Of a DNA stretch of 37,218 nt, positions 1 through 37,218 are shown piece by piece. The notes below the pieces were generated by a model. The model was not told where the DNA came from and ran no database searches. It worked only from the letters and a program-made list of their open reading frames with translations. The stretch lies in contig NW_003146125.1 in NCBI RefSeq assembly GCF_000003605.2, forward strand, positions 1-37,218. Direction: 5' to 3'. The stretch is from Saccoglossus kowalevskii. Its lineage: Eukaryota > Hemichordata > Enteropneusta > Harrimaniidae. Every line of letters begins with the position of its first letter. Position 1 is the first letter of the stretch. The position numbers and the translations under genes were made by a program.

Positions 1-589
1 TGTAGCCTTACCTGATGTAATACCAACCAACTGTAGCCTTATCTGATGCAATACCAACCAATTGTGGCCTTACCTGATGTAATACCAACCAATTGTAGCC
101 TTACCTAATGTAATACCAACCATTTGTGGCCTTACCTGATGTAATATCAACCAATTGTGGCCTTACCTGATGTAATACCAACCAATTGTAGCCTTACCTG
201 ATGTAATACCAATCAATTGTGGCCTTACCTGATGTAATACCAACCAATTGTGGCCTTACCTGATGTAATACCAACCAATTGTAGCCTTACCTGATGTAAT
301 ACCAACCAATTGTGGCCTTACCTGATGTAATACCAACCAATTGTGGCCTTACCTGATGTAATACCAACCACTTGTGGCCTTACCTGATGTAATACCAACC
401 AATTGTGGCCTTACCTGATGTAATATCAACCAATTGTGGCCTTACCTGATGTAATATCAACCAATTGTGGCCTTACCTGATGTAATACCAACCAATTGTA
501 GCCTTACCTGATGTAATACCAACCAATTGTAGCCTTACCTGATGTAATACCAACCAACTGTAGCCTTACCTGATGCAATACCAACCAAT
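1..589. repeat. Higher-order module K, copy 1 (19 units)
   Basis: The 19 units from 1 to 589 carry an ordered set of marks: an A unit ending in AAC, an A unit with TGATGCAAT, G, A ending in CATT, G with ATATC, G, A with CCAATC, G, G, A, G, then a G unit ending in the very rare CAC form (near 370), followed by three G units (two with ATATC), G, A, A ending in AAC, and A with TGATGCAAT. The same order recurs at 29143-29731, including the CAC mark. I counted about four differing bases over the 589 bp. Shorter versions of the opening ten units occur at 776, 10447, 16262, 22100 and 25082, so this is the commonest module start in the window. Confidence 0.9.
558..588. other. TGATGCAAT element (example unit)
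   Basis: Units with C at site 18 contain TGATGCAAT, the reverse complement of ATTGCATCA, which is the amino-acid response element core bound by ATF4 with C/EBP partners at the mammalian CHOP gene. I count roughly 60 such units in the window. The other units have TGATGTAAT, one base away. They occur mainly after AAC units and in the alternating blocks near 3660-4030, 6090-6420, 23390-24330 and 34740-35110. The match may be chance, repeated by amplification. Confidence 0.45.
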
Positions 590-775
590 TGTGGCCTTAC
601 CTGATGTAATACCAACCAATTGTAGCCTTACCTGATGTAATACCAACCATTTGTGGCCTTACCTGATGTAATATCAACCAATTGTGGCCTTACCTGATGT
701 AATACCAACCAATTGTAGCCTTACCTGATGTAATACCAATCAATTGTAGCCTTACCTGATGTAATACCAACCAAT

Positions 776-1240
776 TGTAGCCTTACCTGATGTAATACCA
801 ACCAACTGTAGCCTTACCTGATGCAATACCAACCAATTGTGGCCTTACCTGATGTAATACCAACCAATTGTAGCCTTACCTGATGTAATACCAACCATTT
901 GTGGCCTTACCTGATGTAATATCAACCAATTGTGGCCTTACCTGATGTAATACCAACCATTTGTGGCCTTACCTGATGTAATATCAACCAATTGTGGCCT
1001 TACCTGATGTAATACCAACCAATTGTAGCCTTACCTGATGTAATACCAACCAATTGTGGCCTTACCTGATGTAATACCAACCAATTATAGCCTTACCTGA
1101 TGTAATACCAACCAATTGTGGCCTTACCTGATGTAATACCAACCAATTGTGGCCTTACCTGATGTAATACCAACCAATTGTGGCCTTACCTGATGTAATA
1201 CCAACCAATTGTGGCCTTACCTGATGTAATACCAACCAAT
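776..1240. repeat. Module with TTATAGCC mark, copy 1 (15 units)
   Basis: Fifteen units in the order A-AAC, A-TGATGCAAT, G, A-CATT, G-ATATC, G-CATT, G-ATATC, G, A, G, then a unit with the rare TATAGCC start (site 2 G>A, at 1086), then G, G, G, G. The same string occurs at 16262-16727, and its second half occurs again at 1892-2232. The TATAGCC mark is seen only four times in the window (1086, 2078, 16572 and near 17936), which makes it a good tag for tracing copying. Confidence 0.88.
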
Positions 1241-1457
1241 TGTAGCCTTACCTGATGTAATACCAACCAATTGTGGCCTTACCTGATGTAATACCAACCA
1301 ATTGTGGCCTTACCTGATGTAATATCAACCAATTGTGGCCTTACCTGATGTAATACCAACCAATTGTAGCCTTACCTGATGTAATACCAACCAATTGTGG
1401 CCTTACCTGATGTAATACCAACCAATTGTGGCCTTACCTGATGTAATACCAACCAAT
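900..1457. repeat. Left half of a 992-bp tandem duplication
   Basis: The units at 900-1457 (G-ATATC, G-CATT, G-ATATC, G, A, G, TATAGCC, four G, A, G, G-ATATC, G, A, G, G) recur in the same order at 1892-2449, an offset of exactly 992 bp or 32 units. Both copies carry the rare TATAGCC unit (1086 and 2078). One visible base difference is TGTGACC at 1985. This is a local block duplication, as expected from unequal exchange. Confidence 0.9.
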
Positions 1458-1891
1458 TGTGGCCTTACCTGATGTAATACCAACCAATTGTGGCCTTACC
1501 TGATGTAATACCAACCAATTGTGGCCTTACCTGATGTAATACCAACCAATTGTAGCCTTACCTGATGTAATACCAACCAATTGTGGCCTTACCTGATGTA
1601 ATATCAACCAATTGTAGCCTTACCTGATGTAATACCAACCATTTGTGGCCTTACCTGATGTAATACCAACCAATTGTGGCCTTACCTGATGTAATACCAA
1701 CCAATTGTGGTCTTTCCTGATGTAATACGAATTAATTGTGGCCTTACCTGATGTAATACCAACCAATTGTAGCCTTACCTGATGTAATACCAACCATTTG
1801 TGGCCTTACCTGATGTAATATCAACCAATTGTGGCCTTACCTGATGTAATACCAACCATTTGTGGCCTTACCTGATGTAATACCAACCATT

Positions 1892-2449
1892 TGTGGCCTT
1901 ACCTGATGTAATATCAACCAATTGTGGCCTTACCTGATGTAATACCAACCATTTGTGGCCTTACCTGATGTAATATCAACCAATTGTGACCTTACCTGAT
2001 GTAATACCAACCAATTGTAGCCTTACCTGATGTAATACCAACCAATTGTGGCCTTACCTGATGTAATACCAACCAATTATAGCCTTACCTGATGTAATAC
2101 CAACCAATTGTGGCCTTACCTGATGTAATACCAACCAATTGTGGCCTTACCTGATGTAATACCAACCAATTGTGGCCTTACCTGATGTAATACCAACCAA
2201 TTGTGGCCTTACCTGATGTAATACCAACCAATTGTAGCCTTACCTGATGTAATACCAACCAATTGTGGCCTTACCTGATGTAATACCAACCAATTGTGGC
2301 CTTACCTGATGTAATATCAACCAATTGTGGCCTTACCTGATGTAATACCAACCAATTGTAGCCTTACCTGATGTAATACCAACCAATTGTGGCCTTACCT
2401 GATGTAATACCAACCAATTGTGGCCTTACCTGATGTAATACCAACCAAT
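1892..2449. repeat. Right half of the 992-bp tandem duplication
   Basis: Eighteen units matching 900-1457 at +32 units. The TTCCCTG module follows directly at 2450, whereas the left copy runs on into further G units and then a TCTTTCCTG / CGAATTA unit near 1706-1735. The second copy is therefore the one that keeps the flank also seen at 16572-17500. Confidence 0.9.
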
Positions 2450-2945: not shown

Positions 2946-3131
2946 TGTGGCCTTACCTGATGTAATACCAACCAATTGTAGTCTTACCTGATGTAATATC
3001 AACCAATTGTGGCCTTACCTGATGTAATACCAACCAATTGTAGCCTTACCTGATGTAATATCAACCAATTGTGGCCTTACCTGATGTAATACCAATCAAT
3101 TGTAGCCTTACCTGATGTAATACCAACCAAT

Positions 3132-3317
3132 TGTAGTCTTACCTGATGTAATATCAACCAATTGTGGCCTTACCTGATGTAATACCAACCAATTGTAGTC
3201 TTTCCTGATGTAATACCAACCAATTGTGGCCTTACCTGATGTAATACCAACCATTTGTAGCCTTACCTGATGTAATACCAACCAACTGTAGTCTTACCTG
3301 ATGTAATACCAACCAAT
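3132..3317. repeat. Module S (TAGTCTTTCCTG core), copy 1
   Basis: Six units: TAGTC with ATATC, G, TAGTCTTTCCTG (sites 6 and 10 both T), G ending in CATT, A ending in AAC, and TAGTC. The double mark TCTTTCC and its fixed neighbours recur at 6449, 22850 and 32492 in the same six-unit order, and in modified form at about 15190, 28525, 31624, 36039 and 37063. In all four strict copies the units that follow run G, A, G, A, G, G. Confidence 0.9.
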
Positions 3318-3844
3318 TGTGGCCTTACCTGATGTAATACCAACCAATTGTAGCCTTACCTGATGTAATACCAACCAATTGTGGCCTTACCTGATGTAAT
3401 ACCAACCAATTGTAGCCTTACCTGATGTAATACCAACCAATTGTGGCCTTACCTGATGTAATACCAACCAATTGTGGCCTTACCTGATGTAATACCAACC
3501 AATTGTGGCCTTACCTGATGTAATACCAACCAATTGTAGCCTTACCTGATGTAATACCAACCAATTGTGGCCTTACCTGATGTAATACCAACCAATTGTA
3601 GTCTTACCTGATGTAATATCAACCAATTGTGGCCTTACCTGATGTAATACCAACCAATTGTGGCCTTACCTGATGCAATACCAACCAATTGTGGCCTTAC
3701 CTGATGTAATATCAACCAATTGTGGCCTTACCTGATGCAATACCAACCAATTGTAGCCTTACCTGATGTAATATCAACCAATTGTGGCCTTACCTGATGT
3801 AATATCAACCAATTGTGGCCTTACCTGATGTAATACCAACCAAT

Positions 3845-4619
3845 TGTAGCCTTACCTGATGTAATATCAACCAATTGTGGCCTTACCTGATGCAATACCA
3901 ACCAATTGTGGCCTTACCTGATGTAATATCAACCAATTGTGGCCTTACCTGATGCAATACCAACCAATTGTAGCCTTACCTGATGTAATATCAACCAATT
4001 GTGGCCTTACCTGATGCAATACCAACCAATTGTGGCCTTACCTGATGTAATACCAACCAATTGTAGCCTTACCTGATGTAATACCAACCAATTGTGGCCT
4101 TACCTGATGTAATATCAACCAATTGTGGCCTTACCTGATGTAATACCAACCAATTGTGGCCTTACCTGATGTAATACGAATTAATTGTGGCCTTACCTGA
4201 TGTAATACCAACCAATTGTAGCCTTACCTGATGTAATACCAACCAATTGTAGCCTTACCTGATGTAATATCAACCAATTGTGGCCTTACCTGATGTAATA
4301 CCAACCAATTGTAGCCTTACCTGATGTAATACCAACCAATTGTGGCCTTACCTGATGTAATACCAACCAATTGTGGCCTTACCTGATGTAATACCAACCA
4401 ATTGTAGCCTTACCTGATGTAATACCAACCAATTGTGGCCTTACCTGATGTAATACCAACCAATTGTAGCCTTACCTGATGTAATACCAACCAATTGTGG
4501 CCTTACCTGATGTAATACCAACCAATTGTAGCCTTACCTGATGTAATACCAACCAATTGTGGCCTTACCTGATGTAATACCAACCAATTGTAGCCATACC
4601 TGATGTAATACCAACCAAT
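3845..4619. repeat. 25-unit module with CGAATTA and CCATACC marks, copy 1
   Basis: The string starts with alternating ATATC and TGATGCAAT units (A-ATATC, G-GCAAT, G-ATATC, G-GCAAT, A-ATATC, G-GCAAT), then G, A, G-ATATC, G, a unit ending in the rare CGAATTA (4177), G, A, A-ATATC, and an alternating G/A run that ends with an A unit carrying GCCATACC (4596). The same 25 unit types occur at 34923-35697. The distance from the CGAATTA mark to the CCATACC mark is 419 bp in both copies. Confidence 0.9.
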
Positions 4620-6448: not shown

Positions 6449-6634
6449 TGTAGTCTTACCTGATGTAATATCAACCAATTGTGGCCTTACCTGATGTAAT
6501 ACCAACCAATTGTAGTCTTTCCTGATGTAATACCAACCAATTGTGGCCTTACCTGATGTAATACCAACCATTTGTAGCCTTACCTGATGTAATACCAACC
6601 AACTGTAGTCTTACCTGATGTAATACCAACCAAT
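6449..6634. repeat. Module S, copy 2
   Basis: Same six-unit order as 3132-3317 and exactly 107 units (3,317 bp) to its right, measured on the TCTTTCC mark (3199 and 6516). No net indel separates the two, even though the diverged patch at 5321-5670 lies between them. Confidence 0.9.
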
Positions 6635-7191
6635 TGTGGCCTTACCTGATGTAATACCAACCAATTGTAGCCTTACCTGATGTAATACCAACCAATTGTG
6701 GCCTTACCTGATGTAATACCAACCAATTGTAGCCTTACCTGATGTAATACCAACCAATTGTGGCCTTACCTGATGTAATACCAACCAATTGTGGCCTTAC
6801 CTGATGTAATACCAACCAATTGTAGCCTTACCTGATGTAATACCAACCATTTGTAACCTTACCTGATGTAATACCAACCAATTGTAGCCTTACCTGATGT
6901 AATACCAACCAATTGTGGCCTTACCTGATGTAATACCAACCAATTGTGGCCTTACCTGATGTAATACCAACCAATTGTAGCCTTACCTGATGTAATACCA
7001 ACCAATTGTAGCCTTACCTGATGTAATACCAACCAATTGTAGCCTTACCTGATGTAATACCAACCAATTGTAGCCTTACCTGATGTAATACCAATCAATT
7101 GTGGCCTTACCTGATGTAATACCAACCAATTGTGGCCTTACCTGATGTAATACCAACCAATTGTAGCCTTACCTGATGTAATACCAACCAA

Positions 7192-7564: not shown

Positions 7565-9981
7565 TGTAGCCTTACCTGATGTAATACCAACCAATTGTGG
7601 CCTTACCTGATGTAATACCAACCAATTGTGGCCTTACCTGATGTAATACCAACCAATTGTGGCCTTACCTGATGTAATACCAACCAATTGTAGCCTTACC
7701 TGATGTAATACCAACCAATTGTGGCCTTACCTGATGTAATACCAACCAATTGTGGCCTTACCTGATGTAATACCAACCAATTGTGGCCTTACCTGATGTA
7801 ATACCAACCAATTGTAGCCTTACCTGATGTAATACCAACCAATTGTAGCCTTACCTGATGTAATACCAACCAATTGTAGCCTTACCTGATGTAATACCAA
7901 CCAATTGTGGCCTTACCTGATGTAATACCAACCAATTGTGGCCTTACCTGATGTAATACCAACCAATTGTAGCCTTACCTGATGTAATACCAACCAATTG
8001 TAGCCTTACCTGATGTAATACCAACCAATTGTAGCCTTTCCTGATGTAATACCAACCAATTGTAGCCTTACCTGATGTAATATCAACCAATTGTGGCCTT
8101 ACCTGATGTAATATCAACCAACTGTAGCCTTACCTGATGTAATACCAACCATTTGTAGCCTTACCTGATGTAATACCAACCATTTGTAGCCTTACCTGAT
8201 GTAATACCAACCAATTGTGGCCTTACCTGATGTAATACCAACCAATTGTAGCCTTACCTGATGTAATACCAACCAATTGTGGCCTTACCTGATGTAATAC
8301 CAACCAATTGTGGCCTTACCTGATGTAATCCCAACCAATTGTAGCTTACCTGATGTAATACCAACCAATTGTAGCTTTACATGATGTAATACCAACCAAT
8401 TGTAGCCTTACCTGATGTAATACCAACCAATTGTAGCCTTACCTGATGTAATACCAACCATTTGTGGCCTTACCTGATGTAATACCAACCAATTGTGGCC
8501 TTACCTGATGTAATACCAACCAATTGTAGCCTTACCTGATGTAATACCAACCAATTGTAGCCTTACCTGATGTAATACCAACCAATTGTGGCCTTACCTG
8601 ATGTAATACCAACCAATTGTAGCCTTACCTGATGTAATACCAACCAATTGTGGCCTTACCTGATGTAATACCAACCAATTGTAGCCTTACCTGATGTAAT
8701 ACCAACCAATTGTGGCCTTACCTGATGTAATACCAACCAATTGTAGTCTTACCTGATGTAATATCAACCAATTGTGGCCTTACCTGATGTAATACCAACC
8801 AATTGTGGCCTTACCTGATGTAATACCAACCAATTGTGGCCTTACCTGATGTAATACCAACCAATTGTAGCCTTACCTGATGTAATACCAACCATTTGTG
8901 GCCTTACCTGATGTAATATCAACCAATTGTGGCCTTACCTGATGTAATACCAACCAATTGTAGCCTTACCTGATGTAATACAAATCAATTGTGGCCTTAC
9001 CTGATGTAATACCAACCAATTGTGGCCTTACCTGATGTAATACCAACCAATTGTAGCCTTACCTGATGTAATACCAACCAATTGTGGCCTTACCTGATGT
9101 AATACCAACCAATTGTGGCCTTACCTGATGTAATACCAACCAATTGTGGCCTTACCTGATGTAATACCAACCAATTGTGGCCTTACCTGATGTAATATCA
9201 ACCAATTGTGGCCTTACCTGATGTAATATCAACCAATTGTGGCCTTACCTGATGTAATACCAACCAATTGTAGCCTTACCTGATGTAATACCAACCAATT
9301 GTAGCCTTACCTGATGTAATACCAACCAATTGTAGCCTTACCTGATGCAATACCAACCAATTGTGGCCTTACCTGATGTAATACCAACCAATTGTAGCCT
9401 TACCTGATGTAATACCAACCATTTGTGGCCTTACCTGATGTAATATCAACCAATTGTGGCCTTACCTGATGTAATACCAACCAATTGTAGCCTTACCTGA
9501 TGTAATACCAATCAATTGTGGCCTTACCTGATGTAATACCAACCAATTGTGGCCTTACCTGATGTAATACCAACCAATTGTAGCCTTACCTGATGTAATA
9601 CCAACCAATTGTGGCCTTACCTGATGTAATACCAACCAATTGTGGCCTTACCTGATGTAATACCAACCAATTGTGGCCTTACCTGATGTAATACCAACCA
9701 ATTGTGGCCTTACCTGATGTAATACCAACCAATTGTAGCCTTACCTGATGTAATACCAACCAATTGTAGCCTTACCTGATGCAATACCAACCAATTGTGG
9801 CCTTACCTGATGTAATACCAACCAATTGTAGCCTTACCTGATGTAATACCAACCATTTGTGGCCTTACCTGATGTAATATCAACCAATTGTGGCCTTACC
9901 TGATGTAATACCAACCAATTGTAGCCTTACCTGATGTAATACCAATCAATTGTGGCCTTACCTGATGTAATACCAACCAAT

Positions 9982-10632
9982 TGTGGCCTTACCTGATGTA
10001 ATATCTACCAATTGTGGCCTTACCTGATGTAATACCAACCAATTGTAGCCTTACCTGATGCAATACCAACCAATTGTGGCCTTACCTGATGTAATACCAA
10101 CCAATTGTAGCCTTACCTGATGTAATACCAATCAATTGTGGCCTTACCTGATGTAATACCAACCAATTGTGGCCTTACCTGATGTAATACCAACCAATTG
10201 TAGCCTTACCTGATGTAATACCAACCAATTGTGGCCTTACCTGATGTAATACCAACCAATTGTGGCCTTACCTGATGTAATACCAACCAATTGTGGCCTT
10301 ACCTGATGTAATACCAACCAATTGTGGCCTTACCTGATGTAATATCAACCAATTGTGGCCTTACCTGATGTAATATCAACCAATTGTGGCCTTACCTGAT
10401 GTAATACCAACCAATTGTAGCCTTACCTGATGTAATACCAACCAATTGTAGCCTTACCTGATGTAATACCAACCAACTGTAGCCTTACCTGATGCAATAC
10501 CAACCAATTGTGGCCTTACCTGATGTAATACCAACCAATTGTAGCCTTACCTGATGTAATACCAACCATTTGTGGCCTTACCTGATGTAATATCAACCAA
10601 TTGTGGCCTTACCTGATGTAATACCAACCAAT
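9982..10632. repeat. 21-unit module with ATATCTACC mark, copy 1
   Basis: Starts with a G unit bearing ATATCTACC (10005), then G, A-GCAAT, G, A-CCAATC, G, G, A, G, G, G, G-ATATC, G-ATATC, G, A, A-AAC, A-GCAAT, G, A-CATT, G-ATATC, G. The next unit (10633) has the rare ACTAATC. The same string, including ACTAATC, is found from 21635, where it runs into the scrambled patch. Offset 11,653 bp equals 376 units less the net 3 bp of intervening indels. Confidence 0.9.
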
Positions 10633-10851: not shown

Positions 10852-13800
10852 TGGCCTTACCTGATGTAATACCAACCAATTGTGGCCTTACCTGATGTAA
10901 TACCAACCAATTGTGGCCTTACCTGATGTAATACCAACCAATTGTGGCCTTACCTGATGTAATACCAACCAATTGTGGCCTTACCTGATGTAATACCAAC
11001 CAATTGTGGCCTTACCTGATGTAATACCAACCAATTGTGGCCTTACCTGATGTAATACCAACCAATTGTGGCCTTACCTGATGTAATACCAACCAATTGT
11101 GGCCTTACCTGATGTAATACCAACCAATTGTGGCCTTACCTGATGTAATACCAACCAATTGTGGCCTTACCTGATGTAATACCAACCAATTGTGGCCTTA
11201 CCTGATGTAATACCAACCAATTGTGGCCTTACCTGATGTAATACCAATCAATTGTGGCCTTACTTGATGTAATACCAACCAATTGTAGCCTTACCTGATG
11301 TAATACCAACCAATTGTGGCCTTACCTGATGTAATACCAACCAATTGTGGCCTTACCTGATGTAATATCAACCAATTGTGGCCTTACCTGATGTAATATC
11401 AACCAATTGTGGCCTTACCTGATGTAATACCAACCAATTGTAGCCTTACCTGATGTAATACCAACCAATTGTAGCCTTACCTGATGTAATACCAACCAAC
11501 TGTAGCCTTACCTGATGCAATACCAACCAATTGTGGCCTTACCTGATGTAATACCAACCAATTGTAGCCTTACCTGATGTAATATCAACCAATTGTAGCC
11601 TTACCTGATGTAATACCAACCAATTGTAGCCTTACCTGATGTAATACCAATCAATTGTGGCCTTACCTGATGTAATACCAACCAATTGTAGCCTTACCTG
11701 ATGTAATACCAACCAATTGTGGCCTTACCTGATGTAATACCAACCAATTGTGGCCTTACCTGATGTAATACCAACCAATTGTGGCCTTACCTGATGTAAT
11801 ATCAACCAATTGTGGCCTTACCTGATGTAATATCAACCAATTGTGGCCTTACCTGATGTAATACCAACCAATTGTAGCCTTACCTGATGTAATACCAACC
11901 AATTGTAGCCTTACCTGATGTAATACCAACCAATTGTAGCCTTACCTGATGTAATACCAACCAATTGTAGCCTTACCTGATGTAATACCAACCAATTGTG
12001 GCCTTACCTGATGTAATACCAACCAATTGTGGCCTTACCTGATGTAATACCAACCAATTGTGGCCTTACCTGATGTAATACCAACCAATTGTGGCCTTAC
12101 CTGATGTAATACCAACCAATTGTGGCCTTACCTGGTGTAATACCAACCAATTGTGGCCTTACCTGATGTAATATCAACCAATTGTGGCCTTACCTGATGT
12201 AATATCAACCAATTGTGGCCTTACCTGATGTAATACCAACCAATTGTAGCCTTACCTGATGTAATACCAACCAATTGTAGCCTTACCTGATGTAATACCA
12301 ACCAACTGTAGCCTTACCTGATGCAATACCAACCAATTGTGGCCTTACCTGATGTAATACCAACCAATTGTAGCCTTACCTGATGTAATACCAACCATTT
12401 GTGGCCTTACCTGATGTAATATCAACCAATTGTGGCCTTACCTGATGTAATACCAACCAATTGTAGCCTTACCTGATGTAATACCAATCAATTGTGGCCT
12501 TACCTGATGTAATACCAACCAATTGTAGCCTTACCTGATGTAATACCAACCATTTGTGGCCTTACCTGATGTAATATCAACCAATTGTGGCCTTACCTGA
12601 TGTAATACCAACCAATTGTAGCCTTACCTGATGTAATACCAATCAATTGTGGCCTTACCTGATGTAATACCAACCAATTGTGGCCTTACCTGATGTAATA
12701 CCAACCAATTGTGGCCTTACCTGATGTAATATCAACCAACTGTAGCCTTACCTGATGTAATACCAACCAATTGTAGCCTTACCTGATGTAATATCAACCA
12801 ACTGTAGCCTTACCTGATGTAATACCAACCATTTGTGGCCTTACCTGATGTAATATCAACCAATTGTGGCCTTACCTGATGTAATACCAACCAATTGTGG
12901 CCTTACCTGATGTAATACCAACCAATTGTGGCCTTACCTGATGTAATATCAACCAACTGTAGCCTTACCTGATGTAATACCAACCATTTGTGGCCTTACC
13001 TGATGTAATATCAACCAATTGTGGCCTTACCTGATGTAATACCAACCAATTGTAGCCTTACCTGATGTAATATCAACCAATTGTGGCCTTACCTGATGTA
13101 ATACCAACCAATTGTAGCCTTACCTGATGTAATACCAACCAATTGTAGCCTTACCTGATGTAATACCAACCAACTGTAGCCTTACCTGATGTAATACCAA
13201 CCAATTGTGGCCTTACCTGATGTAATACCAACCAATTGTGGCCTTACCTGATGTAATACCAACCAATTGTGGCCTTACCTGATGTAATACCAACCAATTG
13301 TAGCCTTACCTGATGTAATACCAACCAATTGTGGCCTTACCTGATGTAATACCAACCAATTGTAGCCTTACCTGATGTAATACCAACCAATTGTAGCCTT
13401 ACCTGATGTAATACCAACCAATTGTGGCCTTACCTGATGTAATACCAACCAATTGTGGCCTTACCTGATGTAATATCAACCAACTGTAGCCTTACCTGAT
13501 GTAATACCAACCATTTGTGGCCTTACCTGATGTAATATCAACCAATTGTGGCCTTACCTGATGTAATACCAACCAATTGTAGCCTTACCTGATGTAATAT
13601 CAACCAATTGTGGCCTTACCTGATGTAATACCAACCAATTGTAGCCTTACCTGATGTAATACCAACCAATTGTAGCCTTACCTGATGTAATACCAACCAA
13701 CTGTAGCCTTACCTGATGTAATACCAACCAATTGTGGCCTTACCTGATGTAATACCAACCAATTGTGGCCTTACCTGATGTAATACCAACCAATTGTGGC

Positions 13801-14259
13801 CTTACCTGATGTAATACCAACCAATTGTAGCCTTACCTGATGTAATACCAACCAATTGTGGCCTTACCTGATGTAATACCAACCAATTGTAGCCTTACCT
13901 GATGTAATACCAACCAATTGTAGCCTTACCTGATGTAATACCAACCAATTGTGGCCTTACCTGATGTAATACCAACCAATTGTAGCCTTACCTGATGTAA
14001 TACCAACCAATTGTGGCCTTACCTGATGTAATACCAACCAATTGTAGCCTTACCTGATGTAATACCAACCAACTGTAGCCTTACCTGATGCAATACCAAC
14101 CAATTGTGGCCTTACCTGATGTAATACCAACCAATTGTAGCCTTATCTGATGTAATACCAACCATTTGTGGCCTTACCTGATGTAATATCAACCAATTGT
14201 GGCCTTACCTGATGTAATACCAACCAATTGTAGCCTTATCTGATGTAATACCAACCAAT

Positions 14260-15578: not shown

Positions 15579-16261
15579 TGTGGCCTTACCTGATGTAATA
15601 TCAACCAATTGTGGCCTTACCTGATGTAATATCAACCAATTGTGGCCTTACCTGATGTAATACCAACCAATTGTAGCCTTACCTGATGTAATACCAACCA
15701 ATTGTAGCCTTACCTGATGTAATACCAACCAATTGTGGCCTTACCTGATGTAATACCAACCATTTGTGGCCTTACCTGATGTAATACCAACCAATTGTGG
15801 CCTTACCTGATGTAATACCAACCAATTGTAGCCTTACCTGATGTAATACCAACCAATTGTGGCCTTACCTGATGTAATACCAACCAATTGTAGCCTTACC
15901 TGATGTAATACCAACCAATTGTAGCCTTACCTGATGTAATACCAACCAATTGTGGCCTTACCTGATGTAATACCAACCATTTGTGGCCTTACCTGATGTA
16001 ATACCAACCAATTGTGGCCTTTACCTGATGTAATACCAACCAATTGTAGCCTTACCTGATGTAATACCAACCAATTGTGGCCTTACCTGATGTAATACCA
16101 ACCAATTGTAGCCTTACCTGATGTAATACCAACCAATTGTAGCCTTACCTGATGTAATACCAACCAATTGTAGCCTTACCTGATGTAATACCAACCAACT
16201 GTAGCCTTACCTGATGCAATACCAACCAATTGTAGCCTTACCTGATGTAATACCAACCAAT

Positions 16262-16727
16262 TGTAGCCTTACCTGATGTAATACCAACCAACTGTAGCCT
16301 TACCTGATGCAATACCAACCAATTGTGGCCTTACCTGATGTAATACCAACCAATTGTAGCCTTACCTGATGTAATACCAACCATTTGTGGCCTTACCTGA
16401 TGTAATATCAACCAATTGTGGCCTTACCTGATGTAATACCAACCATTTGTGGCCTTACCTGATGTAATATCAACCAATTGTGGCCTTACCTGATGTAATA
16501 CCAACCAATTGTAGCCTTACCTGATGTAATACCAACCAATTGTGGCCTTACCTGATGTAATACCAACCAATTATAGCCTTACCTGATGTAATACCAACCA
16601 ATTGTGGCCTTACCTGATGTAATACCAACCAATTGTGGCCTTACCTGATGTAATACCAACCAATTGTGGCCTTACCTGATGTAATACCCAACCAATTGTG
16701 GCCTTACCTGATGTAATACCAACCAAT
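16262..16727. repeat. Module with TTATAGCC mark, copy 500 units away
   Basis: This repeats the 15-unit order of 776-1240 with the TATAGCC unit at 16572. The offset is 15,486 bp. After allowing for the net 14 bp lost in indels between the two copies (1 bp near 8341, 14 bp at 15562-15578, 1 bp gained near 16021), it is exactly 500 x 31. One private change is an extra C near 16687 (TACCCAACC). Downstream, at 17007, follows the TTCCCTG module, the same order of modules as on the left (776, then 2450). Confidence 0.87.
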
Positions 16728-19639: not shown

Positions 19640-21634
19640 TACCAACCAATTGTGGCCTTACCTGATGTAATACCAACCAATTGTAGCCTTACCTGATGTA
19701 ATACCAACCAATTGTGGCCTTACCTGATGTAATACCAACCAATTGTGGCCTTACCTGATGTAATACCAACCAATTGTAGCCTTACCTGATGTAATACCAA
19801 CCAATTGTGGCCTTACCTGATGTAATACCAACCAATTGTAGCCTTACCTGATGTAATACCAACCAATTGTAGCCTTACCTGATGTAATACCAACCAATTG
19901 TGGCCTTACCTGATGTAATATCAACCAATTGTAGCCTTACCTGATGTAATACCAACCAATTGTAGCCTTACCTGATGTAATACCAACCAATTGTGGCCTT
20001 ACCTGATGTAATACCAACCAATTGTAGCCTTACCTGATGTAATACCAACCAATTGTGGCCTTACCTGATGTAATACCAACCAATTGTAGCCTTACCTGAT
20101 GTAATACCAACCAATTGTGGCCTTACCTGATGTAATACCAACCAATTGTGGCCTTACCTGATGTAATACCAACCAATTGTGGCCTTACCTGATGTAATAT
20201 CAACCAATTGTGGCCTTACCTGATGTAATACCAACCAATTGTAGCCTTACCTGATGTAATACCAACCAATTGTAGCCTTACCTGATGTAATACCAACCAT
20301 TTGTAGCCTTACCTGATGTAATACCAACCATTTGTAGCCTTACCTGATGTAATACCAACCAATTGTGGCCTTACCTGATGTAATACCAACCAATTGTAGC
20401 CTTACCTGATGTAATACCAACCAATTGTGGCCTTACCTGATGTAATACCAACCAATTGTGGCCTTACCTGATGTAATACCAACCAATTGTAGCCTTACCT
20501 GATGTAATACCAACCAATTGTGGCCTTACCTGATGTAATACCAACCAATTGTAGCCTTACCTGATGTAATACCAACCAATTGTGGCCTTACCTGATGTAA
20601 TACCAACCAATTGTAGCCTTACCTGATGTAATACCAACCAATTGTGGCCTTACCTGATGTAATATCAACCAATTGTGGCCTTACCTGATGTAATATCAAC
20701 CAATTGTGGCCTTACCTGATGTAATACCAACCAATTGTAGCCTTACCTGATGTAATACCAACCAATTGTAGCCTTACCTGATGTAATACCAACCAACTGT
20801 AGCCTTACCTGATGCAATACCAACCAATTGTGGCCTTACCTGATGTAATACCAACCAATTGTAGCCTTACCTGATGTAATACCAACCAATTGTGGCCTTA
20901 CCTGATGTAATACCAACCAATTGTGGCCTTACCTGATGTAATACCAACCATTTGTGGCCTTACCTGATGTAATATCAACCAATTGTGGCCTTACCTGATG
21001 TAATACCAACCAATTGTAGCCTTACCTGATGTAATACCAATCAATTGTGGCCTTACCTGATGTAATACCAACCAATTGTGGCCTTACCTGATGTAATACC
21101 AACCAATTGTAGCCTTACCTGATGTAATACCAACCAATTGTGGCCTTACCTGATGTAATACCAACCAATTGTAGCCTTACCTGATGTAATACCAACCAAT
21201 TGTAGCCTTATCTGATGTAATACTAACCAATTGTAGCCTTACCTGATGTAATACCAACCAATTGTAGCCTTACCTGATGCAATACCAACCAATTGTGGCC
21301 TTACCTGATGTAATACCAACCAATTGTAGCCTTACCTGATGTAATACCAACCATTTGTGGCCTTACCTGATGTAATATCAACCAATTGTGGCCTTACCTG
21401 ATGTAATACCAACCAATTGTGGCCTTACCTGATGTAATACCAATCACTTGTGGCCTTACCTGATGTAATACCAACCAATTGTGGCCTTACCTGATGTAAT
21501 ACCAACCAATTGTAGCCTTACCTGATGTAATACCAACCAATTGTGGCCTTACCTGATGTAATACCAACCAATTGTGGCCTTACCTGATGTAATACCAACC
21601 AATTGTGGCCTTACCTGATGTAATACCAACCAAT

Positions 21635-22285
21635 TGTGGCCTTACCTGATGTAATATCTACCAATTGTGGCCTTACCTGATGTAATACCAACCAATTGTA
21701 GCCTTACCTGATGCAATACCAACCAATTGTGGCCTTACCTGATGTAATACCAACCAATTGTAGCCTTACCTGATGTAATACCAATCAATTGTGGCCTTAC
21801 CTGATGTAATACCAACCAATTGTGGCCTTACCTGATGTAATACCAACCAATTGTAGCCTTACCTGATGTAATACCAACCAATTGTGGCCTTACCTGATGT
21901 AATACCAACCAATTGTGGCCTTACCTGATGTAATACCAACCAATTGTGGCCTTACCTGGTGTAATACCAACCAATTGTGGCCTTACCTGATGTAATATCA
22001 ACCAATTGTGGCCTTACCTGATGTAATATCAACCAATTGTGGCCTTACCTGATGTAATACCAACCAATTGTAGCCTTACCTGATGTAATACCAACCAATT
22101 GTAGCCTTACCTGATGTAATACCAACCAACTGTAGCCTTACCTGATGCAATACCAACCAATTGTGGCCTTACCTGATGTAATACCAACCAATTGTAGCCT
22201 TACCTGATGTAATATCAACCATTTGTGGCCTTACCTGATGTAATATCAACCAATTGTGGCCTTACCTGATGTAATACCCGACCAA
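21635..22285. repeat. 21-unit module with ATATCTACC mark, copy 2
   Basis: Type-for-type match to 9982-10632, with small differences: ACCTGGTG in the unit at 21945, and ATATC added in the unit at 22193. The last unit of the match (22255) already shows the first disturbance (TACCCGACC) of the scrambled patch that follows, and the shared ACTAATC mark lies inside that patch near 22310. Confidence 0.88.
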
Positions 22286-22424
22286 TTGTATCCTTACCTG
22301 ATGTAATACTAATCAATTGTGGTCTTACCTGATGAAAAAACCAAACAAATGTGGCCTTACCTGAGGTATTACCAACCAATTGTACTCCTTACCCTGATGT
22401 AGTACCAACCCACTCGGGGCCCTT
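22277..22424. repeat. Scrambled patch, out of register
   Basis: Four to five units with mixed indels and homopolymer-like changes: TACCCGACC, TGTATCC, ATGAAAAAACC, CCAAACAAAT, GAGGTATTACC, TGTACTCC, TTACCCTG, GTAGTACC, CCCACTCGGGGCCC. Net gain is about 6 bp. The partner copy at 9982-10725 is clean and has the same unit order, including ACTAATC. The kind of change (gained bases, runs of A, C and G) resembles uncorrected long-read error more than ageing. I cannot exclude a real rearrangement. Confidence 0.8.
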
Positions 22425-22849
22425 ACCTGATGTAATACCAACCAATTGTAGCCTTACCTGATGTAATACCAACCAATTGTGGCCTTACCTGATGTAATCC
22501 CAACCAACTGTAGTCTTACCTGATGTAATATCAACCAATTGTAGCCTTACCTGATGTAATACCAACCAATTGTGGCCTTACCTGATGTAATACCAACCAA
22601 TTGTGGCCTTACCTGATGTAATACCAACCAATTGTAGCCTTACCTGATGTAATACCAACCAATTGTGGCCTTACCTGATGTAATACCAACCAATTGTAGC
22701 CATACCTGATGTAATACCAACCAATTGTGGCCTTACCTGATGTAATACCAACCAATTGTAGCCTTACCTGATGTAATATCAACCAATTGTAGCCTTACCT
22801 GATGTAATACCAATCAATTGTAGCCTTACCTGATGTAATACCAACCAAT

Positions 22850-23035
22850 TGTAGTCTTACCTGATGTAATATCAACCAATTGTGGCCTTACCTGATGTAA
22901 TACCAACCAATTGTAGTCTTTCCTGATGTAATACCAACCAATTGTGGCCTTACCTGATGTAATACCAACCATTTGTAGCCTTACCTGATGTAATACCAAC
23001 CAACTGTAGTCTTACCTGATGTAATACCAACCAAT
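22850..23035. repeat. Module S, copy 3, with upstream CCATACC unit
   Basis: Strict six-unit copy with TCTTTCC at 22917. A unit with GCCATACC lies 215 bp upstream (22702). The same 215-bp interval joins GCCATACC and TCTTTCC at 28377/28592 and 36915/37130, so here the module extends to at least about nine units. Downstream the order agrees with 3287-3720 as far as the TGATGCAAT unit near 23392. Confidence 0.9.
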
Positions 23036-26000
23036 TGTGGCCTTACCTGATGTAATACCAACCAATTGTAGCCTTACCTGATGTAATACCAACCAATTGT
23101 GGCCTTACCTGATGTAATACCAACCAATTGTAGCCTTACCTGATGTAATACCAACCAATTGTGGCCTTACCTGATGTAATACCAACCAATTGTGGCCTTA
23201 CCTGATGTAATACCAACCAATTGTGGCCTTACCTGATGTAATACCAACCAATTGTAGCCTTACCTGATGTAATACCAACCAATTGTGGCCTTACCTGATG
23301 TAATACCAACCAATTGTAGTCTTACCTGATGTAATATCAACCAATTGTGGCCTTACCTGATGTAATACCAACCAATTGTGGCCTTACCTGATGCAATACC
23401 AACCAATTGTGGCCTTACCTGATGTAATACCAACCAATTGTGGTCTTACCTGATGCAATACCAACCAATTGTGGCCTTACCTGATGTAATACCAACCAAT
23501 TGTGGCCTTACCTGATGCAATACCAACCAATTGTGGCCTTACCTGATGTAATATCAACCAATTGTGGCCTTACCTGATGCAATACCAACCAATTGTAGCC
23601 TTACCTGATGTAATATCAACCAATTGTGGCCTTACCTGATGTAATATCAACCAATTGTGGCCTTACCTGATGTAATACCAACCAATTGTAGCCTTACCTG
23701 ATGTAATACCAACCAATTGTGGCCTTACCTGATGTAATACCAACCAATTGTGGCCTTACCTGATGTAATACCAACCAATTGTGGCCTTACCTGATGTAAT
23801 ACCAACCAATTGTGGCCTTACCTGATGTAATACCAACCAATTGTGGCCTTACCTGATGTAATACCAACCAATTGTAGCCTTACCTGATGTAATACCAACC
23901 AATTGTGGCCTTACCTGATGTAATACCAACCAATTGTGGCCTTACCTGATGTAATATCAACCAATTGTGGCCTTACCTGATGTAATACCAACCAATTGTG
24001 GCCTTACCTGATGCAATACCAACCAATTGTGGCCTTACCTGATGTAATATCAACCAATTGTGGCCTTACCTGATGTAATACCAACCAATTGTGGCCTTAC
24101 CTGATGCAATACCAACCAATTGTGGCCTTACCTGATGTAATATCAACCAATTGTGGCCTTACCTGATGTAATATCAACCAATTGTGGCCTTACCTGATGT
24201 AATACCAACCAATTGTAGCCTTACCTGATGTAATATCAACCAATTGTGGCCTTACCTGATGCAATACCAACCAATTGTGGCCTTACCTGATGTAATATCA
24301 ACCAATTGTGGCCTTACCTGATGCAATACCAACCAATTGTAGCCTTACCTGATGTAATATCAACCAATTGTGGCCTTACCTGATGTAATACCAACCAATT
24401 GTGGCCTTACCTGATGTAATACCAACCAATTGTAGCCTTACCTGATGTAATACCAACCAATTGTGGCCTTACCTGATGTAATACCAACCAATTGTGGCCT
24501 TACCTGATGTAATACCAACCAATTGTGGCCTTACCTGATGTAATACCAACCAATTGTGGCCTTACCTGATGTAATACCAACCAATTGTAGCCTTACCTGA
24601 TGTAATACCAACCAATTGTGGCCTTACCTGATGTAATACCAACCAATTGTAGTCTTACCTGATGTAATATCAACCAATTGTGGCCTTACCTGATGTAATA
24701 CCAACCAATTGTGGCCTTACCTGATGCAATACCAACCAATTGTGGCCTTACCTGATGTAATATCAACCAATTGTGGCCTTACCTGATGCAATACCAACCA
24801 ATTGTAGCCTTACCTGATGTAATATCAACCAATTGTGGCCTTACCTGATGTAATATCAACCAATTGTGGCCTTACCTGATGTAATACCAAACAATTGTGG
24901 CCTTACCTGATGCAATACCAACCAATTGTGGCCTTACCTGATGTAATATCAACCAATTGTGGCCTTACCTGATGTAATATCAACCAATTGTGGCCTTACC
25001 TGATGTAATATCAACCAATTGTAGCCTTACCTGATGTAATACCAACCAATTGTAGCCTTACCTGATGTAATACCAACCAATTGTAGCCTTACCTGATGTA
25101 ATACCAACCAACTGTAGCCTTACCTGATGCAATACCAACCAATTGTGGCCTTACCTGATGTAATACCAACCAATTGTAGCCTTACCTGATGTAATACCAA
25201 CCATTTGTGGCCTTACCTGATGTAATATCAACCAATTGTGGCCTTACCTGATGTAATACCAACCAATTGTAGCCTTACCTGATGTAATACCAATCAATTG
25301 TGGCCTTACCTGATGTAATACCAACCAATTGTGGCCTTACCTGATGTAATACCAACCAATTGTAGCCTTACCTGATGTAATACCAACCAATTGTGGCCTT
25401 ACCTGATGTAATATCAACCAATTGTGGCCTTACCTGATGTAATATCAACCAATTGTGGCCTTACCTGATGTAATACCAACCAATTGTAGCCTTACCTGAT
25501 GTAATACCAACCAATTGTAGCCTTACCTGATGTAATACCAACCAATTGTAGCCTTACCTGATGCAATACCAACCAATTGTGGCCTTACCTGATGTAATAC
25601 CAACCAATTGTAGCCTTACCTGATGTAATACCAACCATTTGTGGCCTTACCTGATGTAATATCAACCAATTGTGGCCTTACCTGATGTAATACCAACCAA
25701 TTGTAGCCTTACCTGATGTAATACCAACCAATTGTGGCCTTACCTGATGTAATACCAACCAATTGTGGCCTTACCTGATGTAATACCAACCAATTGTAGC
25801 CTTACCTGATGTAATACCAACCAATTGTGGCCTTACCTGATGTAATACCAACCAATTGTGGCCTTACCTGATGTAATACCAACCAATTGTGGCCTTACCT
25901 GATGTAATATCAACCAATTGTGGCCTTACCTGATGTAATACCAACCAATTGTAGCCTTACCTGATGTAATACCAACCAATTGTGGCCTTACCTGATGTAA

Positions 26001-26630: not shown

Positions 26631-26920
26631 AATTGTGGCCTTACCTGATGTAATACCAACCAACTGTAGCCTTACCTGATGTAATACCAACCAACTGTAG
26701 CCTTACCTGATGTAATATCAACCAATTGTAGCCTTACCTGATGTAATACCAACCATTTGTGGCCTTACCTGATGTAATATCAACCAACTGTAGCCTTACC
26801 TGATGTAATACCAACCAACTGTAGCCTTACCTGATGTAATACCAATCATTTGTGGCCTTACCTGATGTAATACCAACCAATTGTGGCCTTACCTGATGTA
26901 ATACCAACCAATTGTAGCCT
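26631..26920. repeat. AAC-rich module with CCAATCATT mark, copy 2
   Basis: Repeats the order of 4868-5160, with the double mark CCAATCATT at about 26846. The offset is 21,766 bp, 702 units plus 4 bp of indels. A few units further on the copies diverge: the left one enters the diverged patch at 5321, while this one continues as ordinary array. Confidence 0.85.
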
Positions 26921-32491: not shown

Positions 32492-32677
32492 TGTAGTCTT
32501 ACCTGATGTAATATCAACCAATTGTGGCCTTACCTGATGTAATACCAACCAATTGTAGTCTTTCCTGATGTAATACCAACCAATTGTGGCCTTACCTGAT
32601 GTAATACCAACCATTTGTAGCCTTACCTGATGTAATACCAACCAACTGTAGTCTTACCTGATGTAATACCAACCAAT
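32492..32677. repeat. Module S, copy 4
   Basis: Strict six-unit copy with TCTTTCC at 32559, preceded by two A-CCAATC units and a unique CCAGTTG junction near 32489. The downstream order, TAGTC, G, A, G, A, G, G, A, G, TAGTC-ATATC, G, G-GCAAT, follows copies 1 and 3 closely and leads into the private-variant patch at 33121. Confidence 0.9.
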
Positions 32678-33120
32678 TGTGGCCTTACCTGATGTAATAC
32701 CAACCAATTGTAGCCTTACCTGATGTAATACCAACCAATTGTGGCCTTACCTGATGTAATACCAACCAATTGTAGCCTTACCTGATGTAATACCAACCAA
32801 TTGTGGCCTTACCTGATGTAATACCAACCAATTGTGGCCTTACCTGATGTAATACCAACCAATTGTAGCCTTACCTGATGTAATACCAACCAATTGTGGC
32901 CTTACCTGATGTAATACCAACCAATTGTAGTCTTACCTGATGTAATATCAACCAATTGTGGCCTTACCTGATGTAATACCAACCAATTGTGGCCTTACCT
33001 GATGCAATACCAACCAATTGTGGCCTTACCTGATGTAATATCAACCAATTGTGGCCTTACCTGATGCAATACCAACCAATTGTAGCCTTACCTGATGTAA
33101 TATCAACCAATTGTGGCCTT

Positions 33121-33454: not shown

Positions 33455-33649
33455 CCAACCAATTGTGGCCTTACCTGATGTAATACCAACCATTTGTGGC
33501 CTTACCTGATGTAATACCAACCAATTGTGGCCTTACCTGATGTAATACCAACCAATTGTAGCCTTACCTGATGTAATACCAACCAATTGTGGCCTTACCT
33601 GATGTAATACCAACCAATTGTAGCCTTACCTGATGTAATACCAACCAAT

Positions 33650-34021: not shown

Positions 34022-34922
34022 TGTAGTCTTACCTGATGTAATATCAACCAATTGTAGCCTTACCTGATGTAATACCAACCATTTGTAGCCTTACCTGATG
34101 TAATACCAACCAATTGTGGCCTTACCTGATGTAATACCAACCAATTGTAGCCTTACCTGATGTAATACCAACCAATTGTGGCCTTACCTGATGCAATACC
34201 AACCAATTGTAGCCTTACCTGATGTAATACCAACCAATTGTGGCCTTACCTGATGTAATACCAACCAATTGTAGCCTTACCTGATGTAATACCAACCAAT
34301 TGTGGCCTTACCTGATGTAATACCAACCAATTGTGGCCTTACCTGATGTAATACCAACCAATTGTGGCCTTACCTGATGTAATACCAACCAATTGTGGCC
34401 TTACCTGATGTAATACCAACCAATTGTGGCCTTACCTGATGTAATACCAACCAATTGTAGCCTTACCTGATGTAATACCAACCAATTGTGGCCTTACCTG
34501 ATGTAATACCAACCAATTGTAGTCTTACCTGATGTAATATCAACCAATTGTGGCCTTACCTGATGTAATACCAACCAATTGTGGCCTTACCTGATGTAAT
34601 ACCAACCAATTGTGGCCTTACCTGATGTAATATCAACCAATTGTGGCCTTACCTGATGTAATACCAACCAATTGTAGCCTTACCTGATGTAATATCAACC
34701 AATTGTGGCCTTACACTGATGTAATATCAACCAATTGTGGCCTTACCTGATGCAATACCAAACCAATTGTGGCCTTACCTGATGTAATATCAACCAATTG
34801 TGGCCTTACCTGATGCAATATCAACCAATTGTAGCCTTACCTGATGTAATATCAACCAATTGTGGCCTTACCTGATGTAATATCAACCAATTGTGGCCTT
34901 ACCTGATGCAATACCAACCAAT

Positions 34923-35697
34923 TGTAGCCTTACCTGATGTAATATCAACCAATTGTGGCCTTACCTGATGCAATACCAACCAATTGTGGCCTTACCTGAT
35001 GTAATATCAACCAATTGTGGCCTTACCTGATGCAATACCAACCAATTGTAGCCTTACCTGATGTAATATCAACCAATTGTGGCCTTACCTGATGCAATAC
35101 CAACCAATTGTGGCCTTACCTGATGTAATACCAACCAATTGTAGCCTTACCTGATGTAATACCAACCAATTGTGGCCTTACCTGATGTAATATCAACCAA
35201 TTGTGGCCTTACCTGATGTAATACCAACCAATTGTGGCCTTACCTGATGTAATACGAATTAATTGTGGCCTTACCTGATGTAATACCAACCAATTGTAGC
35301 CTTACCTGATGTAATACCAACCAATTGTAGCCTTACCTGATGTAATATCAACCAATTGTGGCCTTACCTGATGTAATACCAACCAATTGTAGCCTTACCT
35401 GATGTAATACCAACCAATTGTGGCCTTACCTGATGTAATACCAACCAATTGTGGCCTTACCTGATGTAATACCAACCAATTGTAGCCTTACCTGATGTAA
35501 TACCAACCAATTGTGGCCTTACCTGATGTAATACCAACCAATTGTAGCCTTACCTGATGTAATACCAACCAATTGTGGCCTTACCTGATGTAATACCAAC
35601 CAATTGTAGCCTTACCTGATGTAATACCAACCAATTGTGGCCTTACCTGATGTAATACCAACCAATTGTAGCCATACCTGATGTAATACCAACCAAT
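34923..35697. repeat. 25-unit module with CGAATTA and CCATACC marks, distant copy
   Basis: Matches 3845-4619 type for type over 25 units at an offset of 31,078 bp, close to 1,000 units. I saw no difference in the unit types. Upstream, the two copies share the alternating ATATC / TGATGCAAT character, but this copy has extra units and slips (TTACACTG near 34715, CCAAACC near 34761). Downstream they part: the right copy goes on into a CTGTAGTC unit near 35725. Confidence 0.9.
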
Positions 35698-36038
35698 TGT
35701 GGCCTTACCTGATGTAATACCAACCAACTGTAGTCTTACCTGATGTAATATCAACCAATTGTAGCCTTACCTGATGTAATACCAACCAATTGTGGCCTTA
35801 CCTGATGTAATACCAACCAATTGTAGCCTTACCTGATGTAATACCAACCAATTGTGGCCTTACCTGATGTAATACCAACCAATTGTAGCCTTACCTGATG
35901 TAATACCAACCAATTGTGGTCTTACCTGATGTAATACCAACCAATTGTAGCCTTACCTGATGTAATACCAATCAATTGTAGCCTTACCTGATGTAATACC
36001 AATCAATTGTAGCCTTACCTGATGTAATACCAACCAAT

Positions 36039-36224
36039 TGTAGTCTTACCTGATGTAATATCAACCAATTGTGGCCTTACCTGATGTAATACCAACCAAT
36101 TGTAGTCTTTCCTGATGTAATACCAACCAATTGTGGCCTTACCTGATGTAATACCAACCATTTGTAGCCTTACCTGATGTAATACCAATCAATTGTGGCC
36201 TTACCTGATGTAATACCAACCAAT
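36039..36224. repeat. Module S, modified copy near right end
   Basis: TCTTTCC at 36106 after A-CCAATC, A-CCAATC, TAGTC-ATATC and G, the same lead-in as at 32492. The fifth unit carries CCAATC and the AAC/TAGTC unit is missing. The next copy is 33 units plus 1 bp to the right. Confidence 0.85.
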
Positions 36225-37062
36225 TGTGGCCTTACCTGATGTAATACCAACCAATTGTAGCCTTACCTGATGTAATACCAACCAATTGTGGCCTTACCTG
36301 ATGTAATACCAACCAATTGTGGCCTTACCTGATGTAATACCAACCAATTGTGGCCTTACCTGATGTAATACCAACCAATTGTGGCCTTACCTGATGTAAT
36401 ATCAACCAATTGTGGCCTTACCTGATGTAATATCAACCAATTGTGGCCTTACCTGATGTAATACCAACCAATTGTAGCCTTACCTGATGTAATACCAACC
36501 AATTGTAGCCTTACCTGATGTAATACCAACCAATTGTGGCCTTACCTGATGTAATACCAACCATTTGTGGCCTTACCTGATGTAATACCAAACCAATTGT
36601 GGCCTTACCTGATGTAATACCAACCAATTGTAGCCTTACCTGATGTAATACCAACCAATTGTGGCCTTACCTGATGTAATACCAACCAATTGTAGCCTTA
36701 CCTGATGTAATACCAACCAATTGTGGCCTTACCTTATGTAATACCAACCAATTGTAGCCATACCTGATGTAATACCAACCAATTGTGGCCTTACCTGATG
36801 TAATACCAACCAATTGTAGCCTTACCTGATGTAATACCAACCAATTGTGGCCTTACCTGATGTAATACCAACCAATTGTGGCCTTACCTGATGTAATACC
36901 AACCAATTGTAGCCATACCTGATGTAATACCAACCAATTGTGGCCTTACCTGATGTAATACCAACCAATTGTAGCCTTACCTGATGTAATACCAATCAAT
37001 TGTAGCCTTACCTGATGTAATACCAATCAATTGTAACCTTACCTGATGTAATACCAACCAAA

Positions 37063-37218
37063 TGTAATCTTACCTGATGTAATATCAACCAATTGTGGCC
37101 TTACCTGATGTAATACCAACCAATTGTAGTCTTTCCTGATGTAATACCAACCAATTGTGGCCTTACATGATGTAATACCAACCATTTGTAGCCTTACCTG
37201 ATGTATACCAACCAACTG
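37063..37218. repeat. Module S, last copy, cut by window end
   Basis: TCTTTCC at 37130 in the usual order, with small private changes: AAATGTAATC at the start (near 37061), TTACATG near 37166, and a 1-bp loss (GATGTATACC near 37204). The window ends inside the following AAC unit, so the array continues to the right. Confidence 0.85.

What the first reader, a model, noticed from the sequence alone, without database searches (positions are those of the whole stretch)
1..37218. Mosaic higher-order organisation without one fixed super-period
Unit types form named modules that recur in the same internal order but in different combinations and at very different distances (32, 107, 376, 470, 500, 702, about 940 and about 1,000 units). 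Classical higher-order arrays have one fixed period. Here blocks of 6 to 25 units have been copied and re-joined, so segments far apart can be more alike than neighbours.
Basis: partly seen in the sequence, partly recalled or inferred. Interest (0 to 1): 0.7.

Follow-up and report, generated by a model that had tools for sequence, protein, structure and literature searches.

The report
Scrambled 31-base repeat array
A whole 37-kilobase piece of an animal genome, probably a fish, is one 31-base unit repeated about 1,200 times, in which short runs of variant units have been copied to places all along the array; this looks like repair-type copying rather than neat side-by-side duplication, and is a clear example of an ordinary kind of repeat evolution.

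Summary
The window is one entire contig: about 1,200 head-to-tail copies of a 31-bp unit. Encoded by variant bases, it holds 41 strong copied segment pairs (>=30 bits) against none in 100 unit-order permutations. The longest exact run is 25 units, against 13. An 818-bp stretch recurs exactly 31 kb away. All eight distances in the finding are present. There is no fixed super-period. Pair distances look like those of random pairs, and length does not depend on distance.

Simulations favour non-tandem copying of patches of roughly 10-60 units from near-random donors, plus a little local duplication. Coverage and length tail were matched by 35 of 204 dispersed-copying runs and 0 of 179 tandem-duplication runs, with cut-offs set afterwards. 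The likeliest mechanism is out-of-register repair synthesis (gene conversion, SDSA or BIR), as proposed for minisatellites. It is inferred, not shown.

Beyond chance, the unit was found nowhere else in the 572-Mb assembly. I saw no coding or RNA-gene signal. Fixed-period order is not universal among satellites, so this is a new member of a known kind, of moderate interest.

The parts
1..37218 (+). The 31-bp tandem array (consensus TGTGGCCTTACCTGATGTAATACCAACCAAT), about 1,200 units, one orientation, filling the whole contig; no flank is seen at either end
   Evidence: TRF; unit segmentation; window = contig G000:C3677 entire; no reverse-strand match to the 22-mer core at up to 3 mismatches
3752..4619 (+). 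Copied block, first copy of the strongest pair (units 121-148); partner 31,078 bp away
   Evidence: Unit-level alignment, 82.7 bits, 27 of 28 units identical; an 818-bp exact DNA repeat starts at 3832
34830..35697 (+). Copied block, second copy of the strongest pair (units 1123-1150)
   Evidence: the exact 818-bp repeat starts at 34910
3132..3503 (+). 12-unit module 'KAMJDN...' (units 101-112), copy 1 of 4
   Evidence: Identical 12-unit strings at units 101, 208, 737, 1048
6449..6820 (+). Same module, copy 2 (units 208-219)
22850..23221 (+). Same module, copy 3 (units 737-748)
32492..32863 (+). Same module, copy 4 (units 1048-1059); the copies have different left and right neighbours
3008..3689 (+). 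Block (units 97-118) copied at 22726-23407, 636 units away
   Evidence: 63.8 bits, 21 of 22 units
12896..13980 (+). A clear fresh tandem duplication: an 18-unit match at an offset of 17 units (units 416-433 / 433-450)
   Evidence: 47.6 bits, 18 of 18; one of 4 of 97 pairs with distance under 1.5 times length
9951..10539 (+). Block (units 321-339) copied at 21604-22192, 376 units away
   Evidence: 46.9 bits, 18 of 19 units
745..1271 (+). Block (units 24-40) copied at 16231-16789, 500 units away
   Evidence: 46.4 bits
4868..5146 (+). Block 'RDFELDYAA' (units 157-165) copied at 26634-26912, 702 units away
   Evidence: 43.3 bits, 9 of 9 units of mostly rare types

Best explanation
This is a noncoding 31-bp minisatellite-like array whose order of variant units is a mosaic. 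Shown: blocks of about 6-35 units recur in the same internal order at distances that look random over the 37 kb, with no fixed super-period, and the copies share rare private variants. Inferred: breaks or stalled forks in the array are repaired by copying from an out-of-register template in the same array, sister or homologue (gene conversion by synthesis-dependent strand annealing, or short break-induced replication with template switching). Each event pastes a patch of roughly 10-60 units (about 0.3-2 kb; up to about 3 kb if the array is much longer) from a donor chosen almost regardless of distance. Occasional short local duplications or slippage add a small excess of similarity at 2-5 units. 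No function is indicated.
For: Shared rare variants travel with the blocks: a unit with three changes at units 134, 192, 1136 (and 55 with extra changes), 17A at 87/557, 10C at 79/549/593, 2A at 35/67/535/579, 15G at 391/708. Among 97 pairs >=22 bits, distances fit random pairs (KS D 0.12, p 0.13), length against distance rho 0.02, and clustering of pairs is no more than after re-pairing partners (p 0.43, 0.20, 0.81). Order information reaches about 8 units. Copies of one core carry reassorted flanks. Variants at position 4 occur in all four combinations with each of the other seven common variants, as exchange inside units or recurrent mutation would give. Simulations: (667 runs, 235 with matching type diversity), best 25 all dispersed copying, best tandem-duplication run ranked 73rd; (367 runs, 169 kept), none of 45 tandem runs in the best 30, best ranked 40th; heavy-tailed tandem duplication (321 runs, 48 kept) best misfit 2.19 against 0.77 and 1.04 for the best dispersed runs. 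Coverage <=0.72 with 95th-percentile length <=26 units: 35 of 204 dispersed runs, 0 of 179 tandem runs. Conversion limited to about 60 units fits badly (best 2.38, 28 runs). Precedent: SDSA is proposed for MSY1, MS32, MS205 and CEB1 (PMC2599865 Discussion).
Against: The cut-offs and misfit weights were set by me, the former after seeing results; adding >=60 segments leaves only 5 of 204 dispersed runs (0 of 179 tandem). Pure dispersed copying does not give the observed excess at lags 2-5 (1.15 against about 0.9-1.1), so some tandem duplication is needed. Left and right extensions of shared cores correlate (rho 0.30, p 3e-4, 141 non-independent pairs), so copies are partly tree-like. Replacement and insertion of copied blocks are not told apart. 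MSY1 conversion tracts are described as one repeat (<=25 bp), far shorter than here. One assembled contig gives no view of alleles, and base-level accuracy is unknown.
Confidence: 0.6

Rival explanations
1. Unequal sister-chromatid exchange alone (tandem duplication and deletion of blocks, Smith's model), with many large events later broken up so that fragments look dispersed.
For: It is the textbook model (passages of PMC8997354). One clear 17-unit tandem duplication exists. Small excess similarity at lags 2-5. Tandem duplication of large blocks also gives flat autocorrelation in simulation. Shared cores are partly tree-like.
Against: Only 4 of 97 pairs have distance under 1.5 times length. 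No collinear clustering of pairs beyond re-paired partners. 0 of 179 tandem runs match coverage and length tail: small blocks give too much local similarity, large blocks cover more than about 0.8-0.9 of the array with tails of about 44-84 units against 23 seen. Only simple size distributions and arrays up to 9,600 units were tried, few of the latter (9 kept runs).
Confidence: 0.2
2. Re-insertion of array-derived circles or copied fragments at distant sites (extrachromosomal circular DNA, rolling-circle copies), rather than in-place conversion.
For: The insertion model fits about as well as replacement. eccDNA re-integration is discussed for short-unit satellites (passages of PMC10264360).
Against: Rolling-circle copies would give local tandem runs of one block; few are seen. 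Nearly all junctions keep the 31-bp register: 1,180 of 1,201 segments are exactly 31 bp, so homology must guide insertion anyway.
Confidence: 0.12
3. Assembly artefact: the mosaic comes from mis-joined reads of a collapsed longer array.
For: The contig has no flank and is all repeat. A patch of odd units at 22255-22509 has homopolymer-like insertions resembling read errors.
Against: Mis-joins predict few, long, near-identical duplications, probably near contig ends. Seen are 41 strong pairs with median length about 12 units (median over the 97 pairs >=22 bits) spread along the array, longest exact repeat 818 bp. Reads were not available, so local mis-joins stay possible.
Confidence: 0.08

Closest known systems
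Hypervariable minisatellites with variant-repeat maps (MSY1, MS32, MS205, CEB1)
   Same: Short unit (31 bp here), interspersed variant units, modular codes; conversion by SDSA proposed for them (PMC2599865, abstract and Discussion read); one locus as far as the assembly shows
   Different: At least 37.2 kb and 1,200 units, against 0.5-30 kb typical of minisatellites (passages of PMC8122249) and 77 repeats in the MSY1 donor allele; inferred patches of tens of units against single repeats at MSY1; no allele data
Satellites with dispersed block duplications ('HORs' in the TRASH sense, for example Arabidopsis CEN178)
   Same: Runs of 3 or more units repeated in order at any distance, found off the diagonal of a unit-by-unit matrix (TRASH passages)
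   Different: 31-bp unit, single contig, no centromere evidence; TRASH itself was not run and no Arabidopsis data were compared here
Human alpha-satellite higher-order arrays
   Same: Variant units amplified in blocks
   Different: Here there is no dominant super-period; alpha arrays have chromosome-specific fixed periods (passages)
Short-unit centromeric satellites such as Chio1/2 (23 and 28 bp) of Chionographis japonica
   Same: Similar unit length and long arrays (passages of PMC10264360)
   Different: Chio makes megabase arrays at about 100 sites in both orientations and 16% of the genome; here one contig and one orientation

Membership tests
Fixed-period higher-order-repeat satellite (alpha-satellite type) | One dominant super-period of n units | tested here: not met
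   Autocorrelation near chance at short lags; highest values at lag 2 (0.258) and, with z 4.8, lag 544 (0.271), against chance 0.206
Block-duplication HOR (TRASH definition) | Runs of at least 3 consecutive units matching another run, at any distance | tested here: met
   355 exact runs >=6 units against a mean of 44 in 60 permutations; 41 against 0 at >=30 bits. TRASH itself was not run
Minisatellite | Tandem unit of about 10-100 bp (range recalled) | tested here: met
   31 bp
Minisatellite | Array of 0.5-30 kb | tested here: not met
   At least 37.2 kb, ends not seen; range from passages of PMC8122249. Size alone is a soft criterion
Minisatellite | Allele length and structure hypervariable between individuals | not testable with these tools
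   One assembled contig only
Minisatellite evolving by gene conversion (SDSA) | Length-neutral patch replacements in new mutants | not testable with these tools
   Only indirect: simulations favour dispersed patch copying but do not separate replacement from insertion
Centromeric satellite | Arrays on many or all chromosomes | tested here: not met
   718 of 718 exact 26-mers in the genome lie in this contig; 22-mer core at up to 3 mismatches 1,188 of 1,190, with 2 elsewhere against 2.8 expected by chance. Unassembled or collapsed copies cannot be excluded
Centromeric satellite | CENP-A/CENH3 occupancy | not testable with these tools
   No chromatin data

The most novel reading that the evidence does not exclude
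A single-locus giant minisatellite in which patch copying from near-random donors over at least 37 kb, not unequal exchange, is the dominant force: block similarity shows no decay with distance. If so, the array is a natural record of repair-template choice inside a tandem repeat, and the locus may be a break or fork-stalling hotspot.
Probability: 0.3. Interest if true: 0.55.

Novelty: new member of a known kind. Interest (0 to 1): 0.35.

Why it matters
How tandem arrays homogenise (unequal exchange, conversion or break-induced replication) is debated, and most data come from long units with fixed periods. This array has about 1,200 short, well-typed units and block copies spread over its whole length. 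It therefore lets patch size and donor distance be estimated directly from one contig, and it argues against tandem duplication as the only process. It does not reveal a new kind of element.

Tried and rejected
Coding: no frame >=80 aa, ends open. RNA genes: no Rfam match at gathering thresholds and no tRNA. Relatives: no exact match to the core pattern in viral contigs or in genome contigs, which is bacterial and archaeal; no match of window 1-1000 in plasmids. These collections say little about a vertebrate. Secondary structure: a minus-strand dimer folds only mildly better than shuffles (z -2.3, 6 of 200 shuffles as good), the plus strand no better (z -0.9). A hidden long period was rejected. 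Excess mutual information at lags 400-500 (z 5-7) was set aside as small-sample bias, because the null was made at full length. Clustering of rare variants was not significant with my test (22 in 10 units; permutations mean 16, max 29). Variant frequencies per 100 units are mildly uneven: 3 of 7 variants at p<0.03. Markov resampling as a null was rejected as circular. Papers not held: two looked up by DOI. Literature searches for a 31-bp satellite or minisatellite gave nothing that I recognised as this unit (listings; one search found 0 papers); none of the papers listed was opened for this.
Full report
WHAT IS THERE. The window is the whole of contig C3677 (37,218 bases) of a 572-Mb assembly of 4,830 contigs. 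It is one tandem array from end to end with a 31-bp unit (TRF 1-37215, 1,199 copies, 94% matches). Segmenting against the consensus gives 1,200 units plus a 2-base remnant; 1,180 of the 1,201 segments are exactly 31 bp, with 34 inserted and 18 deleted bases in all. There are 97 unit types counting insertions. Most variation is at eight positions (4, 6, 10, 18, 23, 27, 30, 31). All units lie on one strand. There is no open frame of 80 aa, no Rfam match at gathering thresholds and no tRNA.

IS THE MOSAIC REAL? Each unit was coded by its exact sequence and the string compared with itself. The longest exact run is 25 units (units 124 and 1126), and 43 runs reach 10 units. In 100 permutations of unit order the longest was 13 and the mean number of runs >=10 was 0.06. 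With mismatches and gaps allowed, 41 pairs score >=30 bits and 97 score >=22 bits. Permutations gave 0 and a mean of 0.02. Shuffles keeping exact adjacent pairs gave means of 0.08 and 2.7, and permuting 5-unit blocks gave 0.3 and 7.1. Units in at least one pair make up 58% at >=30 bits and 69% at >=22 bits. At DNA level an 818-bp stretch at 3832 recurs exactly at 34910. Markov resamplings of order 2-3 do reach long runs, because they reproduce rare strings of the array; I do not count them as a null, but report them.

Private variants give independent confirmation. A unit with three changes occurs at units 134, 192 and 1136 (and at 55 with additions). The change 17A occurs only at units 87 and 557, 10C at 79, 549 and 593, 2A at 35, 67, 535 and 579, and 15G at 391 and 708. 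Most of these sit at the distances of the block pairs, for example 470, 1002 and 317.

NO PERIOD, NO DISTANCE EFFECT. The chance of identity between units k apart is close to the overall 0.206 at the short lags printed, except lag 2 (0.258) and lag 5 (0.245); banded means stay between 0.187 and 0.237. Base differences per unit are 1.34-1.49 for lags 1-800 and 1.56 for lags 801-1099, so the two ends differ slightly more. The 97 pairs have distances like random pairs (KS p 0.13; 11 pairs under 50 units against 7.9 expected). Length is unrelated to distance (rho 0.02). Pairs cluster no more than after re-pairing partners (p 0.43, 0.20, 0.81). Order information between units is strong at lags 1-5, weak to lag 8, and close to nothing beyond. 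Copies of a core such as KAMJ (5 copies) or BDGAEC (7 copies) have differing, reassorted neighbours. However, left and right extensions of shared cores correlate (rho 0.30), so some copies descend together.

HOW IT WORKS. I simulated arrays of abstract labels under tandem duplication with balancing deletion (TD), patch replacement (GC) and patch insertion (INS), keeping runs with similar type diversity. One search was a five-run trial. In one search, 235 of 667 runs were kept (TD 86, INS 78, GC 71); the best 25 are all GC or INS and the best TD run is 73rd. In one search, with 4% added noise, arrays up to 9,600 units and distance-limited conversion, 169 of 367 were kept. The best 30 hold no TD run (45 kept, best 40th). 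Conversion limited to about 60 units fits badly (best misfit 2.38), about 200 units moderately (1.61), and unlimited best (1.04). In one search, TD with log-uniform block sizes (48 of 321 kept) reached 2.19. Coverage <=0.72 with a 95th-percentile length <=26 units was met by 35 of 204 unlimited GC/INS runs and 0 of 179 TD runs; adding >=60 pairs (coverage <=0.75, length <=28) leaves 5 of 204 and 0 of 179. These cut-offs and the misfit weights are mine, and the cut-offs were set after seeing results. Best-fitting patches average about 10-60 units (0.3-2 kb), up to about 100 in a longer array. The excess at lags 2-5 (1.15 times chance) needs some local duplication as well. I therefore favour repair synthesis on out-of-register templates (SDSA, gene conversion or BIR), with minor tandem duplication. 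Inference ends there: no alleles, reads or experiments were seen.

GENOMIC SETTING. The exact 26-mer CCTTACCTGATGTAATACCAACCAAT occurs 718 times in the assembly and 718 times in the window. The 22-base core at up to 3 mismatches occurs 1,190 times, 1,188 of them in the window, with 2.8 expected elsewhere by chance. So the assembly shows one locus and no junction to unique DNA. Copies missing or collapsed in the assembly cannot be excluded. A 17,037-base mitochondrial contig has a COX1 frame of 529 codons open under the vertebrate code, hence without AGA or AGG, and its COX2 is closest to a group of solved COX2 chains of similar length that I recall to be mammalian (the tool names no species). 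I take the host to be a vertebrate and, from genome size, probably a ray-finned fish. No tree was made, and an exact search for a conserved 18S motif found nothing.

COMPARISON. Minisatellites show modular variant maps, with SDSA proposed as the cause (PMC2599865, abstract and Discussion). Passages of PMC8997354 set unequal exchange against BIR for satellite arrays. Passages of PMC10199239 define HORs as block duplications at any distance, which this array meets under my own test. Passages of PMC10027222 show pea satellite arrays with patchy homogenisation and large segmental duplications. Passages of PMC8122249 give 0.5-30 kb as usual for minisatellite arrays, which this one exceeds. So it is a large, clean member of a known kind, and the fixed-period contrast is not general.

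Noticed in passing
window 22255-22509 (units 718-725): A run of odd units with extra bases in short homopolymers and private changes; either an unhomogenised island or poor base calling.
   Followed up: partly
window 15562, 19611, 26353, 33424: Units of 17, 40, 33 and 40 bp: rare junctions out of the 31-bp register, possible scars of non-homologous joins.
   Followed up: no
L025 (4.3 kb of the 17,037-base mitochondrial contig C4830): Mitochondrial gene order looks rearranged: COX1 is on the opposite strand to ND1 and COX2, with tRNA-Gln and tRNA-Ala between COX1 and COX2. Flatfishes and some other fishes are known for such changes (abstract starts in the listing).
   Followed up: partly
whole array, minus strand: Each standard unit contains CAGGTAAG on the minus strand, which resembles a strong 5' splice-site consensus (recalled, not tested).
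   Followed up: no
whole array: Slight alternation of the two commonest units (lag 2 identity 0.258 against 0.206 by chance), a weak 62-bp dimer tendency.
   Followed up: partly
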